64,000 bases of DNA, taken from the NCBI RefSeq assembly GCF_031312535.1, contig NZ_CP133594.1, positions 310,001-374,000 of the forward strand. Direction: 5' to 3'. Source of the DNA: Methanolobus mangrovi. Its GTDB lineage: Archaea > Halobacteriota > Methanosarcinia > Methanosarcinales > Methanosarcinaceae. Below are positions 1,290-8,272 of this stretch, in pieces. The notes below the pieces were generated by a model, which was given only the letters and a program-made list of their open reading frames with translations, had not been told where the DNA came from and did no database searches. Numbering within the stretch: position 1 is the first letter of the stretch; each line of letters starts with the position of its first letter. Made by a program: the position numbers and the translations under genes.

Positions 1290-2966
1290 TTAAAGTTTAA
1301 TGTAGGCAAGTAGTTCTTCATTGCCGATTCTTTTTAGAAAATCATCTTTATCTGAAAAAGGAATCTGGCTATATATGAGCGCGGCCTGTTTTTTTCCGAT
1401 GCCGGGGAGTTCTTGTATAAGTGATGCGGGAGCAGTGTTTATATCAAGTGGGTATGGAATTCCGGTAATTGATCTGTGCCCATGCCGGGTCACGGTAATA
1501 TCTATAAACTTTCCAAGTGGGAGATTTGCAGGGATTCCTGCAAGCAGTGGGTAAGAACCCATCTGTCTTCCAAAACACATTTTTCCATCATTGACTTCAC
1601 ACATGATGTCTCGAAGTATTGTCCCGGCAGGAACTACCTTCTGAAGCATTGGAAGGTCTATATCTTTTCTAACCTTCTCTTTGTACTTTAGAAATACTTG
1701 TTTATGCTTCCTGACAAGTTCGTCGTTGCCATACATTAAGGTGCCCGGGAAGGCCATAACCTGCCTTATGTTTATCCTTCGAAGCAGGAGATCAGAGTCA
1801 AGGACATTTTTCAGGAAATCATAGTTCAGGTCAAATGTCTTTTTTGATTCTCCCATAAGGCCATGTACAAGGTTGATTCCGGGAAGTATCTCTGGCATTC
1901 CATTGCTTCCTCGTATTCTTCCCACTTCATTTATGATCTTAATGGCTTCAAATATTTCATCAGGCATCGCTTTTAACCCATTGGCTTTCACAACACTGGG
2001 GTCTGCGCTTTCCATCCCAAGTGCTGCTACGTCTCCTGCAGTGTGGTATTTTACAATGGTTCTGAATATTTCCCTGCATAATTCCGGGTATGCTGATATG
2101 GTCCCCGGGTTGGCATTGTCCATATGCAATACTTTTAGTTGCGGTGCCACATTCCTGATGCCTTTATAGAGGGACAGTATGGCTTGCGGATCCGGTTCGG
2201 CTATTTGTCCGCCTTTATCCCTGGCATGGTAGCTCAAGATGTCGGGTTGTCTTCCTATCCTGAAATAGCTGGCACCCATCTCATATAATCCGGTGACTTC
2301 GGAAACAACATCAATGATGGGGCGGTAGTCTGAGCTTCCGTAGGATGGCTCCGTGCAAAATGAGCAGTGCTGGTTACGCCCGCATCCTCTGTACGTTTCA
2401 AGCTCACACATCACATTAGGGTAATCTGGATGTTGTTTGATGATGAACGTTCCTTTTACGGCCCATCTTCCAATTTCATCAACTGACCTGAAACGATGCT
2501 GACATTCTTCTATATTTTTTATATTTTCTTCAAGAATGTCATAAACAAAGGCTTCGATATCTTTCTGGCAGATAGTCACATCTGTGGAATTTATCAGGTT
2601 ACTTTCGGCCTTTTTTCCACCTTCCAGTGAGAATCCAAGTCTTATGGGTCCGCCCAATATTTTCAAACCACTGGATGCACTGAATATGCTCTCTATCTCT
2701 GCCAGGTTTATTGGTGTTGAACGCAGGTACTTTCCGGGCACAGTCATACCTGCTACTATTATAACAATTTCAGCTCTTTTTATAAGCTCGGCAGCATGGA
2801 CCATTTTTTTGCGCAGCTCATCGATAGTGAAAAAAGAGATGTCTGTTTCTTGCAACCCTCTCTCCCGCAATGCGCCTGCGATATATCTTATGTATGGTGA
2901 TATGTATGGTGGTACTCCAAAACAGGCGGGTTCATCAACATATCCATCGATTATTACTGCTTTCAT
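1290..2966 (-). CDS. Radical SAM protein with C-terminal helix-hairpin-helix (COG1031 family)
   Basis: A 558-residue protein. The cluster-binding cysteines are C195, C201 and C204 (C-x5-C-x2-C, in RGCGRNQHCSFC); the wider spacing than classic CxxxCxxC is typical of COG1031. About the first 150 residues resemble a Rossmann or B12-binding-like fold without an obvious cobalamin motif. The C-terminus carries NTAPASLIQELPGIGKKQA near residues 510-530, a helix-hairpin-helix usually linked to nucleic acid binding. COG1031 is common in archaea and its reaction is not established; a role in nucleic acid modification is only suggested by the HhH. The gene converges on the flippase gene with a 9-base gap and starts next to a 538-base spacer shared with ilvD. 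Confidence 0.85.
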   Translation of the reverse strand: MKAVIIDGYVDEPACFGVPPYISPYIRYIAGALRERGLQETDISFFTIDELRKKMVHAAELIKRAEIVIIVAGMTVPGKYLRSTPINLAEIESIFSASSGLKILGGPIRLGFSLEGGKKAESNLINSTDVTICQKDIEAFVYDILEENIKNIEECQHRFRSVDEIGRWAVKGTFIIKQHPDYPNVMCELETYRGCGRNQHCSFCTEPSYGSSDYRPIIDVVSEVTGLYEMGASYFRIGRQPDILSYHARDKGGQIAEPDPQAILSLYKGIRNVAPQLKVLHMDNANPGTISAYPELCREIFRTIVKYHTAGDVAALGMESADPSVVKANGLKAMPDEIFEAIKIINEVGRIRGSNGMPEILPGINLVHGLMGESKKTFDLNYDFLKNVLDSDLLLRRINIRQVMAFPGTLMYGNDELVRKHKQVFLKYKEKVRKDIDLPMLQKVVPAGTILRDIMCEVNDGKMCFGRQMGSYPLLAGIPANLPLGKFIDITVTRHGHRSITGIPYPLDINTAPASLIQELPGIGKKQAALIYSQIPFSDKDDFLKRIGNEELLAYIKL

Positions 2967-5211: not shown

Positions 5212-5260
5212 AAAATATGACCGATGGTTATTTTAGATTTGATTGCCTGAGTATTATTTA

Positions 5261-5437
5261 ATGGAAAGAGTGGGCATTTGTTCGATATGTGGTTCGGTAT
5301 CTGGTATGCACACATGTGCTATATGTGGAAGACTCGTCTGCAACGGATGCTATGATTTCTCCAGAAGTGTTTGTATCCAGTGTTCTTCAGGTATGACTTT
5401 TTCTGAGATGTCATCTGAAAGATCCGGGTTGATTTGA
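5261..5437 (+). CDS. Small zinc-finger-like protein, 58 aa
   Basis: A 58-residue protein in which eight cysteines are arranged as paired ligands: CSICG near residue 6, CAICGRLVCNGC in the middle and CIQC near residue 40. The pattern resembles a treble-clef or B-box/FYVE-like double zinc site. Similar small cysteine-rich proteins (HIT-type or RING-like) are common in archaea and rarely characterised. ATG 5261 is preferred over a TTG at 5243 because the conserved pattern begins just after it. It converges on the RHH-repeat gene with a 1-base gap. Partner and function are unknown. Confidence 0.65.
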   Translation: MERVGICSICGSVSGMHTCAICGRLVCNGCYDFSRSVCIQCSSGMTFSEMSSERSGLI

Positions 5438-5438
5438 A

Positions 5439-7298
5439 TCATTTTAACCTGTGGAGTTGCTCAATACCATTTTCCTGTTTGAGCACAAGTACTTCCCTTG
5501 CCACAAGTTCCTGTATTTTCCTGTCAATATCTTCCTGGCTATAATGGCGTGAAACAAGGCTTTTGATAATTTCTTTCTTCACTTTTGCGCCGCGCGGCAT
5601 ATACATCAGTATGTTCCCCTCAAGTTTGTCTAATTTAGTATCATCACTCTGCTCTATCATTGGCGCAGGTGTGAAAGGTGTTGGTTGTGGTGGTATATTA
5701 TGTACTTCTGGCATACCTTCAAAGTTTGCAGGCTGCACCATGTCCGACAATTCAAATGTAGGCATTCCTTCAGGTGGTTTGAAATCTGGTACTACTGGCG
5801 TATGCTCTGGTGGCTTAAGTTCCGGCATTACAAATCCTAAATCCTGGTTCGTTTGCTCCGGTGGTTTCAATTCCGGCATTACAAATCCTGAATTCTGGTT
5901 TGTTTGCTCTGGTGGCTTAAATTCTGGCATTACAAATCCTGAGTCCTGGTTTGTTTGCTCTGGTGGCTTAAGTTCCGGCATTACAAATCCTAAATCCTGG
6001 TTCGTTTGCTCCTGTGGTTTCAATTCCGGCATTACAAATCCTGAATTCTGGTTTGTTTGCTCTGGTGGCTTAAATTCTGGCATTACAAATCCTGAGTCCT
6101 GGTTTGTTTGCTCTGGTGGCTTAAGTTCTGGCATTACAAATCCTATATCCTGATTTGTTTGCTCTGGTGGTTTAAATTCTGGCATTACAAATCCTGAGTC
6201 TTGGTTTGTTTGCTCCTGTGGCTTAAGTTCTGGCATCACAAATCCTGAATCCTGATTTGCTTGCTCTGGTGGCTTCAATTCCGGCATTACAACTCCTGAA
6301 TCCTGATTTGTTTGCTCTGGTGGTTTTAGCTCTGGCATTACAAATCCTGAGTCCTGGTTTGTTTGCTCTGGTGGCTTAAGTTCCGGCATCACAAATCCTG
6401 AATCCTGATTTGTTTGCTCCTGTGGCTTCAATTCCGGCATTACAAATTCTGAGTCTTGATTTGCTTGCTCTGGTGGCTTTAGCTCTGGCATTACAAATCC
6501 TGAATCCTGATTTGTTTGCTCCGGTGACTTAAATTCCGGCATTACAAATGCTGAGTCCTGGTTTGTTTGCTCCGGTGGCTTAAGTTCTGGCATTACAAAT
6601 CCTGAGTCCTGGTTTGTCTGTTTCAAGATTATGGGTGTTGCATTTTCGATTTCTGGTTGTGCCATTTCAAGTTCCGATTCACTTCTTTTTTCCGCCACTA
6701 TTTCAGACAACTTCATTTCATGAATGGATTCTTCGAAGCTTTGCTGTATTTTATTTTCGGGTTCAAATTCTGCTTCTTCGGTACTATTAATCATTGTTTC
6801 CTGTACTGGTTCAGCAAGTTCCTGTTTAACTTCTTCATTGTCTGGCAATGGTGGCTCTATTTGTTCTACAGTTTCTTGTAGCACTGGTTTTAAGTTAACC
6901 TGGGCTATGGCATCTGCTTCTTTAAAAATGTCATTCGTTCCGATGTGTGCAAACTCTTCGATTGTCTGGGATTCAAAAAGTAATTCGTCATCCAATGTTA
7001 TGTTTTTATCCTCTGTTTTATGTGCATAGATCATGTCTGATTCATTTTCTACGTTTTCGAGGACTTCATTTATTCCTGGGATATTCTTTTCGATCATTTC
7101 CAGGCGATTAAGTACTATGTTCACATCATCTCTGAGGATTGCAAATCTTTCAGTCCATGGTATAATATTATCTGTTGGAACATTGTCTAACATGTCCAGT
7201 TCCCTTTCGATAAGTTTTCTGATGAACAGGCTCTTATTCTCAATTACGTCCAGTTTATCAAAAAGCTCATCCGACATGCTTATAGTAAGTCGTTTCAT
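5439..7298 (-). CDS. Ribbon-helix-helix protein with sixteen 17-residue repeats and a C-terminal winged-helix-like domain
   Basis: A 619-residue protein of unknown function with three parts. Residues 1-45 (MKRLTISMSDELFDKLD, then SLFIRKLIERELDML) fit a CopG/MetJ-type ribbon-helix-helix DNA-binding fold. Residues about 50-226 are acidic and low complexity. Residues 227-498 are sixteen tandem copies of a 17-residue unit, consensus QTNQDSGFVMPELKPPE. After a proline-rich stretch, residues about 555-619 (MPRGAKVKKEIIKSL to the C-terminus) are charged and helical and look like a small winged helix. The N-terminal arm suggests a dimeric DNA binder; the repeats look like an extended spacer or multivalent ligand. 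A palindrome at 7340-7360 lies in its promoter, suggesting autoregulation (inference). No homologue with this architecture is known to me. Confidence 0.85.
   Translation of the reverse strand: MKRLTISMSDELFDKLDVIENKSLFIRKLIERELDMLDNVPTDNIIPWTERFAILRDDVNIVLNRLEMIEKNIPGINEVLENVENESDMIYAHKTEDKNITLDDELLFESQTIEEFAHIGTNDIFKEADAIAQVNLKPVLQETVEQIEPPLPDNEEVKQELAEPVQETMINSTEEAEFEPENKIQQSFEESIHEMKLSEIVAEKRSESELEMAQPEIENATPIILKQTNQDSGFVMPELKPPEQTNQDSAFVMPEFKSPEQTNQDSGFVMPELKPPEQANQDSEFVMPELKPQEQTNQDSGFVMPELKPPEQTNQDSGFVMPELKPPEQTNQDSGVVMPELKPPEQANQDSGFVMPELKPQEQTNQDSGFVMPEFKPPEQTNQDIGFVMPELKPPEQTNQDSGFVMPEFKPPEQTNQNSGFVMPELKPQEQTNQDLGFVMPELKPPEQTNQDSGFVMPEFKPPEQTNQNSGFVMPELKPPEQTNQDLGFVMPELKPPEHTPVVPDFKPPEGMPTFELSDMVQPANFEGMPEVHNIPPQPTPFTPAPMIEQSDDTKLDKLEGNILMYMPRGAKVKKEIIKSLVSRHYSQEDIDRKIQELVAREVLVLKQENGIEQLHRLK
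5805..6620 (-). repeat. Sixteen tandem 51-bp coding repeats
   Basis: 816 bases, exactly 16 x 51, encode the 17-residue units. Variation sits at a few positions: T/A in the second residue, D/N, the S/L/I position, F/L in PEF or PEL, and PPE/PQE. The three units at 5805-5957 repeat the three at 5958-6110 with a single base difference, so the array grew recently by a 153-base step. Confidence 0.97.
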
Positions 7299-7339
7299 AG
7301 CAATCTCTCTTTGATGTATTTTTATGTAGAATCATACTA

Positions 7340-7360
7340 ATGTATGCATATATCATACAT
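7340..7360. promoter_or_regulatory. Palindrome in the RHH-repeat gene promoter
   Basis: Perfect 7-base arms ATGTATG (7340-7346) and CATACAT (7354-7360) flank a CATATAT spacer, about 45-60 bases upstream of the start codon at 7298 and overlapping the likely TATA and initiation region on the minus strand. Ribbon-helix-helix regulators often bind such sites in their own promoters. Confidence 0.45.
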
Positions 7361-7498
7361 ATATAATTAATGCAATTATATTTTTATTTCGATGTATGTT
7401 ACTACCTGTGCTTGAAATCTCTTGTTTATTCAAAATAAAAGACAAGCTAATGGAGGTACTTAAGCATATTAAAAAAAAGTAAATATGTGAATGAAAAT

Positions 7499-8272
7499 TC
7501 ACATTGATTTCTTACATTCCGGGCAGGCTTTGCCCCTCGTTGTTGAGATAAATGAATGCTTTGGGGTTATACACTTGCACATGGGGCACAATTCATTATT
7601 CTTGAATATCTTTTCCACTGCCTGAAGATCTGCCTCATAAATATGTGTGTCCCATCCGGTGGCTATAAGTGACTCTATCTCGTAAGGTAAGTCCTGTTCC
7701 TTGAACACCTTTTTGAATCCTTCTACAATGGCAGGGATATTTGCGGGGAATCCACCGAACGCATCCCATGATCTATACAATATGTATATCCTTACCTGGG
7801 TGTCGTTTAAAAGCTCTACTTTATATGCTATCCAGCATGGCTGGTCTTCATATTTAGGGATGTGGACTTCGTTCTCCCAGAGGACACCAACATGTCTCCT
7901 GGATCCTGGGCGCAGGTTGCTCACATTTTCCTGCAATGTATTATATGCTGTTTGTCCGTACCTGAACAATTGCTTAGCATAGCAGTAGTCGAATTTCCTC
8001 TTGTCGTCATCTGAAAGTGAAACGTACCAGTCTGCATACTCTTCCGTGAGTTCTTCCTTGTACTTCTTTATAAGGTTCTCTCCAAAAGGTACGGCAGGAT
8101 TGACCTGCATGTTGTTCACATCCTCTATGTATATAGTGGCGTGCACTCTCTTTGTCATCGTTTTGTAGTCGGGTTTGTGCTCCTCCCCTTTTTCATAGAT
8201 CTCGCTGATCAATTGAGACCATGCCGATGAGATCGTTTTTGCTTTTATCAGTACAGCTTCCATGTCACTCAT
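7499..8272 (-). CDS. Thymidylate synthase family protein (ThyA fold) with zinc-ribbon-like tail
   Basis: 257 residues. The C-terminal half matches ThyA: R125-R126 phosphate arginines, catalytic C146 in QPCW, R167-S168-x-D170 and N178 in YRSWDAFGGFPANIP, and H210-x-Y212 in WDTHIYEADL. These are the dUMP-binding and nucleophilic positions, so the protein should act on a pyrimidine nucleotide, by analogy making dTMP or a hydroxymethylated product. Canonical H147 and Q165 (E. coli numbering) are W and Y here. The N-terminal region is divergent, as in other archaeal members (COG0207). The last 30 residues contain C229-x2-C232 (plus C234) and C250-x2-C253, a zinc-ribbon-like addition not found in E. 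coli ThyA. It lies alone, upstream of the RHH-repeat gene on the same strand with a 200-base gap. Confidence 0.8.
   Translation of the reverse strand: MSDMEAVLIKAKTISSAWSQLISEIYEKGEEHKPDYKTMTKRVHATIYIEDVNNMQVNPAVPFGENLIKKYKEELTEEYADWYVSLSDDDKRKFDYCYAKQLFRYGQTAYNTLQENVSNLRPGSRRHVGVLWENEVHIPKYEDQPCWIAYKVELLNDTQVRIYILYRSWDAFGGFPANIPAIVEGFKKVFKEQDLPYEIESLIATGWDTHIYEADLQAVEKIFKNNELCPMCKCITPKHSFISTTRGKACPECKKSM

What the first reader, a model, noticed from the sequence alone, without database searches (positions are those of the whole stretch)
5439..7298. RHH domain, long 17-residue repeat array and winged-helix-like end in one protein
Seen: a CopG-like N-terminus, sixteen identical-length units (QTNQDSGFVMPELKPPE), and a small charged C-terminal domain that looks like a winged helix. 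Known: RHH proteins usually are short DNA-binding dimers. Inference: two nucleic acid-binding ends joined by a flexible multivalent linker could bridge DNA sites or organise the nucleoid. I know of no family with this arrangement.
Basis: partly seen in the sequence, partly recalled or inferred. Interest (0 to 1): 0.7.

Follow-up and report, generated by a model that had tools for sequence, protein, structure and literature searches.

The report
Self-regulating RHH protein with motif-repeat tail
It is an undescribed single-copy protein of methane-producing archaea (Methanosarcinaceae) that very probably switches off its own gene by binding one unique DNA site next to it, and that carries a long disordered tail of repeated short motifs ending in a winged-helix domain that looks made for protein docking rather than for organising the whole chromosome.

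Summary
Observation confirmed: ORF 5439-7298(-), 619 aa, with an RHH-like N-terminus, exactly 16 x 17-residue units (aa 227-498) and a C-terminal winged helix (AlphaFold2 pLDDT about 90). No Pfam or NCBIfam model reaches its cut-off. It is a one-per-genome family in 8 of 14 Methanosarcinaceae genera, not found elsewhere in the order. The locus is conserved: rfcL <-> mtxX-(mtxA-mtxH or a thyA-like gene)-[this gene]->, converging on ilvD. Repeats are an elaboration: homologues of 184-322 aa lack them. New finding: a conserved operator directly upstream, GTATGA-N5-GCATAC-N4-GTATGA (window 7332-7358, - strand): three hexamers phased 11 and 10 bp beside the TATA-like box. It stands before 28 orthologues, including all 23 examined in the window's genus. 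In the window's genome the full site occurs once; the next best matches have 3 mismatches. This supports dedicated autorepression and argues against genome-wide bridging, although non-specific binding is not excluded. The winged helix has an acidic third helix and resembles RPA32/MCM5/cullin domains, which suggests protein docking. The repeat core F-x-M-P-[ED]-[LF]-K-x-P-E is kept across genera and within the array (pN/pS 0.15): probably a multivalent binding motif. Its partner is unknown.

The parts
5439..7298 (-). CDS, 619 aa: RHH, coiled coil, disordered linker with 17-aa repeats, winged helix
   Evidence: orthologues in 8 of 14 Methanosarcinaceae genera
7191..7298 (-). RHH domain, aa 1-36 (MKRLTISMSDELFDKLDVIENKSLFIRKLIERELDM)
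   Evidence: RHH_1 matched by 8 of 17 members, best E 1.9e-4, below cut-off for the window copy; hhalign to NikR/RHH P 1.8e-4; pN/pS 0.058 in the genus
7041..7151 (-). predicted coiled coil, about aa 50-86
   Evidence: profile matches GCN4-type coiled coils in PDB, E 1e-4 to 1e-2; helix in AF2 model, pLDDT 70-80
6621..7040 (-). acidic linker aa 87-226 (net charge -26), with the element ..MKLSEIVAEK.. seen in several same-genus homologues
5805..6620 (-). array of 16 x 17-aa units, consensus QTNQDSGFVMPELKPPE, aa 227-498
5634..5804 (-). Pro-rich spacer aa 499-555
5442..5633 (-). C-terminal winged helix, about aa 556-619
   Evidence: AF2, Foldseek, pN/pS 0.079
7332..7358 (-). operator GTATGATATATGCATACATTAGTATGA; hexamers at 7353-7358, 7342-7347 (inverted) and 7332-7337; perfect dyad TGTATG-N7-CATACA at 7341-7359
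   Evidence: conserved upstream of 28 orthologues; PWM hit in the window only here; only site in the genome with fewer than 3 mismatches
7359..7366 (-). TATA-box-like TTATATAT abutting the operator
   Evidence: sequence; conserved in the upstream regions

Best explanation
It is a dedicated, autoregulated, DNA-anchored adaptor. RHH dimers, further joined by the coiled coil, bind cooperatively to three helically phased GTATGA half-sites that abut the TATA-like box of their own promoter, and repress it. The long acidic tail hangs off this complex: tandem copies of the short motif F-x-M-P-[ED]-[LF]-K-x-P-E and the terminal winged helix dock one or more partner proteins, so that the amount or state of the partner sets whether the gene is repressed, or the partner is held at or assembled on the complex. 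Shown here by sequence: domain order, operator conservation, uniqueness and phasing, selection on both end domains and on the repeat core. Inferred: binding, repression, protein docking. Not known: the partner.
For: The operator is conserved upstream of all 23 same-genus loci examined plus 5 loci of two other genera, while the gene upstream changes from thyA-like to mtxH. In the genus, 20 of 27 genomes hold an exact TGTATG-N7-CATACA, always at this promoter, with 3 extra copies in all against 4 for the reversed control pattern. In the window's genome the three-hexamer site has one hit with 0 mismatches and none with 1 or 2. Half-sites 11 and 10 bp apart lie on one face of the helix, as for RelB dimers on relO (PMC2812701). 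GTATGA is also the half-site of E. coli NikR (PMC7055735), and the RHH strands align (R3-L-T-I-S). End domains are under strong constraint (pN/pS 0.058 and 0.079). Repeat units keep their amino acids (pN/pS 0.146) and the 17-aa period recurs with different unit sequences across the genus and in a second genus (192 spacings of exactly 17). The winged helix resembles P. abyssi Rpa2 WH (TM 0.68/0.70) and MCM5 WH; Rpa2 WH binds primase and PolD (PMC11686378). Its third helix is acidic.
Against: RHH_1 is below its curated cut-off for the window copy, and the monomeric AF2 model (pLDDT 68) cannot show the dimer ribbon. Genus g11 keeps the strand KRLTIS but has no GTATGA operator; g7, g10 and g12 also lack it, so autoregulation by this site is indicated only for a part of the family. 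Repeats are absent in several genera, so they are not needed for a core function; pN/pS within some arrays is near 0.6-0.7. No partner protein was identified.
Confidence: 0.6

Rival explanations
1. Plain RHH autorepressor whose repeats are a neutral, slippage-expanded spacer and whose winged helix only adds dimerisation; no multivalent docking.
For: Array length varies between species (4-21 units in the longest 17-aa run) and the array is absent in several genera; tandem duplication explains similarity of units; some arrays have pN/pS 0.6-0.7.
Against: Core MP[ED][LF]xxPE kept across several genera while flanking residues change; pN/pS 0.15-0.35 in most arrays of close relatives of the window; same 17-aa period with different units.
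Confidence: 0.25
2. One reading: nucleoid-organising bridge that joins many DNA sites through its two ends, like a CdbA-type RHH nucleoid protein.
For: Two globular ends and a long linker; RHH nucleoid proteins exist (CdbA, PMC7156744); RHH dimers may also bind DNA non-specifically.
Against: The strong site is unique in the genome; acidic third helix in the winged helix and a strongly acidic linker; homologues of about 190 aa have almost no linker.
Confidence: 0.08
3. Centromere-like partition protein (SegB/ParG/Omega type): the operator is the single chromosomal centromere and the tail contacts a ParA-type ATPase.
For: RHH domain, disordered tail, three iterated half-sites upstream of its own gene; SegB also binds palindromes upstream of segAB (PMC12284271).
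Against: No ParA/SegA neighbour seen in any locus; SegB has many sites clustered at segAB and near oriC1, here one; gene at least 400 kb from both orc1/cdc6 genes; absent from several related genera.
Confidence: 0.05
4. The palindrome is bound by another regulator (for example the genome's true NikR) and this protein is only its target.
For: GTATGA is the E. coli NikR hexamer and a NikR-like protein is encoded elsewhere in the genome.
Against: Spacing N5, not the N16 of NikR; the site goes with this gene, and genomes that lack the gene hold the dyad only as rare chance-like copies (2 of 16).
Confidence: 0.04

Closest known systems
NikR / CopG / RelB class of RHH autoregulatory repressors
   Same: N-terminal beta-alpha-alpha with R-x-T-x-S/T strand; hexamer half-sites phased about one helical turn at the own promoter; NikR half-site GTATGA identical
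   Different: Shorter alpha1-alpha2 loop (6-residue gap against NikR); no metal-binding domain; half-sites N5 apart rather than N16; long repetitive disordered tail and winged helix
RHH antitoxins with disordered tails (ParD2, RelB, VapB)
   Same: RHH plus flexible partner-binding tail, autoregulation
   Different: No toxin gene recognised beside it; tail up to several hundred residues; ends in a folded winged helix
SegB (archaeal chromosome segregation)
   Same: Archaeal RHH protein, palindromic sites upstream of own gene
   Different: No segA partner; one site instead of many; domain order and length differ
Winged helix of archaeal RPA32 (Rpa2 WH) and of MCM5
   Same: Fold, size, position at the end of a flexible linker; Foldseek and weak profile matches
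   Different: 24% identity or less; E-values not significant; not attached to OB folds or AAA+; found only in this family
CdbA (Myxococcus RHH nucleoid protein)
   Same: RHH fold
   Different: [quoted passage not shown] no linker or winged helix as here (last point from own knowledge)

Membership tests
RHH superfamily (Pfam RHH_1) | Profile match above the curated cut-off (20.5 bits) | tested here: not met
   Window copy 12.7 bits; best member E 1.9e-4; 8 of 17 members match at E <= 1; the gene is not listed by PF01402 in its own genome
RHH superfamily (Pfam RHH_1) | beta-strand with alternating R-x-T-x-S/T followed by two helices | tested here: inconclusive
   Sequence pattern and profile-profile alignment agree (P 1.8e-4); AF2 monomer shows helix but not the strand, which needs the dimer
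RHH superfamily (Pfam RHH_1) | Operator of short half-sites phased on one DNA face | tested here: met
   Three hexamers at 11 and 10 bp, conserved; binding itself not testable
NikR | C-terminal nickel-binding domain; GTATGA-N16-TCATAC operator | tested here: not met
   NCBIfam NikR 12.7 of 83 bits; spacing N5; a separate NikR-like protein exists
SegB / ParB-like partition protein | Gene paired with a ParA/SegA ATPase | tested here: not met
   Neighbours in about 40 loci are mtxX, mtxA/mtxH or thyA-like, ilvD
SegB / ParB-like partition protein | Several binding sites clustered near own locus or origin | tested here: not met
   One site; at least 400 kb from orc1/cdc6
Type II RHH antitoxin | Toxin gene adjacent | tested here: not met
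   Neighbours are named and include no recognised toxin; VAPB_antitox matched by 1 of 17 members, E 0.019
Winged-helix fold | H-(E)-H-H-E-E topology with confident model | tested here: met
   pLDDT about 90; Foldseek hits are mostly winged helices, though E is 0.017 at best
DNA-binding winged helix | Basic recognition helix and wing | tested here: not met
   alpha3 mean net charge -2.5, wing -0.3; alpha2 +4.0
Nucleoid-associated bridging protein | Many or non-specific DNA sites, two DNA-binding ends | tested here: inconclusive
   Only one strong site and one end not DNA-like in charge; non-specific binding not testable with these tools

The most novel reading that the evidence does not exclude
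A new kind of archaeal single-site hub: an RHH complex fixed at one unique chromosomal address that displays, per dimer, more than thirty copies of one linear motif plus winged helices, gathering many copies of a partner protein at that one locus (a seeded, self-limiting assembly or condensate), with the repeat number tuned by tandem duplication.
Probability: 0.15. Interest if true: 0.8.

Novelty: new variant of a known kind. Interest (0 to 1): 0.5.

Why it matters
It gives a concrete, testable autoregulatory circuit (protein plus a unique 27-bp operator) for a conserved but unnamed protein of methylotrophic methanogens, and a natural series of homologues with no repeats up to about 20 repeats, in which the role of motif number in a DNA-anchored disordered tail can be measured. 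Its locus beside mtxX(AH), also unexplained, offers a lead on that cluster.

Tried and rejected
Known-family filing: Pfam, NCBIfam, PHROGs and PADLOC gave no assignment; no phage relative. The RHH-only profile found no RHH in PDB; the longer one found NikR at E 0.049 only. Second operator sites in genus g14 looked like a regulon at first, but one is inside a coding gene (gatE-like) and the other is a hairpin just behind argG, so both were discarded. Extra sites in G060, G064 and G050 are isolated cases not shared between relatives. VapB-antitoxin kinship: weak. Origin-proximal segregation role: gene far from orc1/cdc6. Methanosarcina-like genomes: mtxXAH and ilvD are present, the gene is missing.

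Full report
The observation. The ORF at 5439-7298 on the minus strand encodes 619 residues. The tandem array is real: 16.0 copies of 51 bp, in codons 16 units of 17 residues at aa 227-498, lag-17 self-identity 33.8 sd above shuffled linkers. The units share length, not exact sequence.

The family. Whole-protein and profile searches find one copy per genome in 8 of 14 genera of the same family. No match appeared in the other genera of the order that were searched (186 genomes, 27 genera). The window's genus is Methanolobus: contig G049:C11 has the same length as a record named Methanolobus. The gene lies at a fixed place: rfcL divergent from mtxX; then mtxA and mtxH in some genera (g7, g10 and others) or a thyA-like gene in g1 and g11; then this gene, converging on a small cysteine-rich ORF and ilvD. 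Genomes whose sizes fit Methanosarcina (g13; name inferred) keep mtxXAH and ilvD but lack the gene. Homologues range from 184 to 714 aa: the two ends are always recognisable, while the repeats are absent in g10 and g12 and in g7 and part of g11, and richest in Methanolobus.

The N-terminal end. Pfam RHH_1 is the best model, with 8 of 17 members matching, best E 1.9e-4, but below cut-off for the window copy. The profile-profile comparison with NikR/RHH sequences of the same order aligns the strand and both helices at P 1.8e-4 against 0.29 for an unrelated control. The AF2 monomer gives helices only, as expected for a fold whose strand pairs across a dimer (established knowledge of RHH). A predicted coiled coil follows.

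The operator. Upstream of the start codon lies TATATATGTATGATATATGCATACATTAGTATGATTC. It contains three hexamers, GTATGA, inverted GCATAC, GTATGA, whose centres are 11 and 10 bp apart (window 7332-7358), next to a TATA-like TTATATAT. The element stands before all 23 same-genus loci examined, three with a spacer shorter by 1 bp, and before 5 loci of genera g2 and g14 whose upstream gene is different. It has a single match in the window (expected 0.04 at up to 3 mismatches). In the 2.62-Mb genome there is one match with no mismatch, none with one or two, and nine with three (control two per strand). Across the genus the exact dyad occurs in 20 of 27 genomes, at this promoter each time, with 3 extra copies in total. 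Genera g7, g10, g11 and g12 lack the element; g11 does so although its strand is unchanged. The hexamer equals the half-site of E. coli NikR, GTATGA-N16-TCATAC (PMC7055735), but with a phasing of about one helical turn like that of cooperatively binding RHH dimers such as RelB on relO, where hexads are bound on one face and spacing is essential (PMC2812701). From these the inference is cooperative autorepression.

The tail. The linker is acidic (-26 over aa 87-226, -31 over the array). Between units of the window copy pN/pS is 0.146, and 0.2-0.35 in most closely related arrays, higher (0.6-0.7) in degenerate ones. The core F-x-M-P-[ED]-[LF]-K-x-P-E recurs in several genera although the flanks differ, and the period is 17 in 192 cases (next 34, then 18). 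This reads as a repeated linear motif for a partner; partner and binding are inference. A caveat is that tandem duplication itself keeps units alike.

The C-terminal end. AF2 gives a winged helix with pLDDT about 90. Foldseek returns MCM5, Rpa2 WH (TM 0.68/0.70, 24% identity), cullin WHB and several DNA-binding regulators, none significant by E-value. The third helix is acidic on average over the homologues (-2.5) and the second basic (+4.0). Rpa2 WH is a protein-docking domain that binds primase and PolD (PMC11686378). A DNA-reading role is therefore less likely than protein docking, but not excluded.

Verdict. The best model is a negatively autoregulated, DNA-anchored adaptor with a multivalent tail. 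Autoregulation in Methanolobus, g2 and g14 is the strongest step (about 0.85 by my judgement); docking by the tail is weaker (about 0.6). It is a new architecture within a known class (RHH autoregulators), hence a new variant of a known kind.

Noticed in passing
window 7499-8272 (-): ThyA-like protein scoring far below the methanogen thymidylate synthase cut-off (77.7 of 174.55 bits) and ending in a Cys-rich zinc-ribbon-like tail; it sits where other genera have mtxA-mtxH.
   Followed up: partly
window 5243-5437 (+): Small conserved cysteine-rich ORF (CxxC pairs) converging with the finding and ending 2 bp from its stop codon; kept across most loci.
   Followed up: partly
window 1290-2966 (-): Conserved radical-SAM/B12-like protein of 558 aa with no NCBIfam assignment above cut-off (TIGR04014 15.7 of 360 bits), next to ilvD and a flippase-like gene in many genera.
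   Followed up: no
L064, L066 (genus g11): Same protein family with a different, 31-aa repeat around SPSF(L/V)MPELSD instead of the 17-aa repeat.
   Followed up: no
L080:7754-9052: The homologue is split into two ORFs (161 + 262 aa), possibly a frameshift or assembly error.
   Followed up: no
L181, L182, L183 (genomes without the gene): mtxXAH and ilvD are neighbours with the RHH gene cleanly missing: loss or non-acquisition.
   Followed up: partly
L191, L192, L194 behind argG: Perfect hairpin TTGTATGCA-N3-TGCATACAA or similar directly after the argG stop codon in g14, probably a terminator that mimics the operator dyad.
   Followed up: yes
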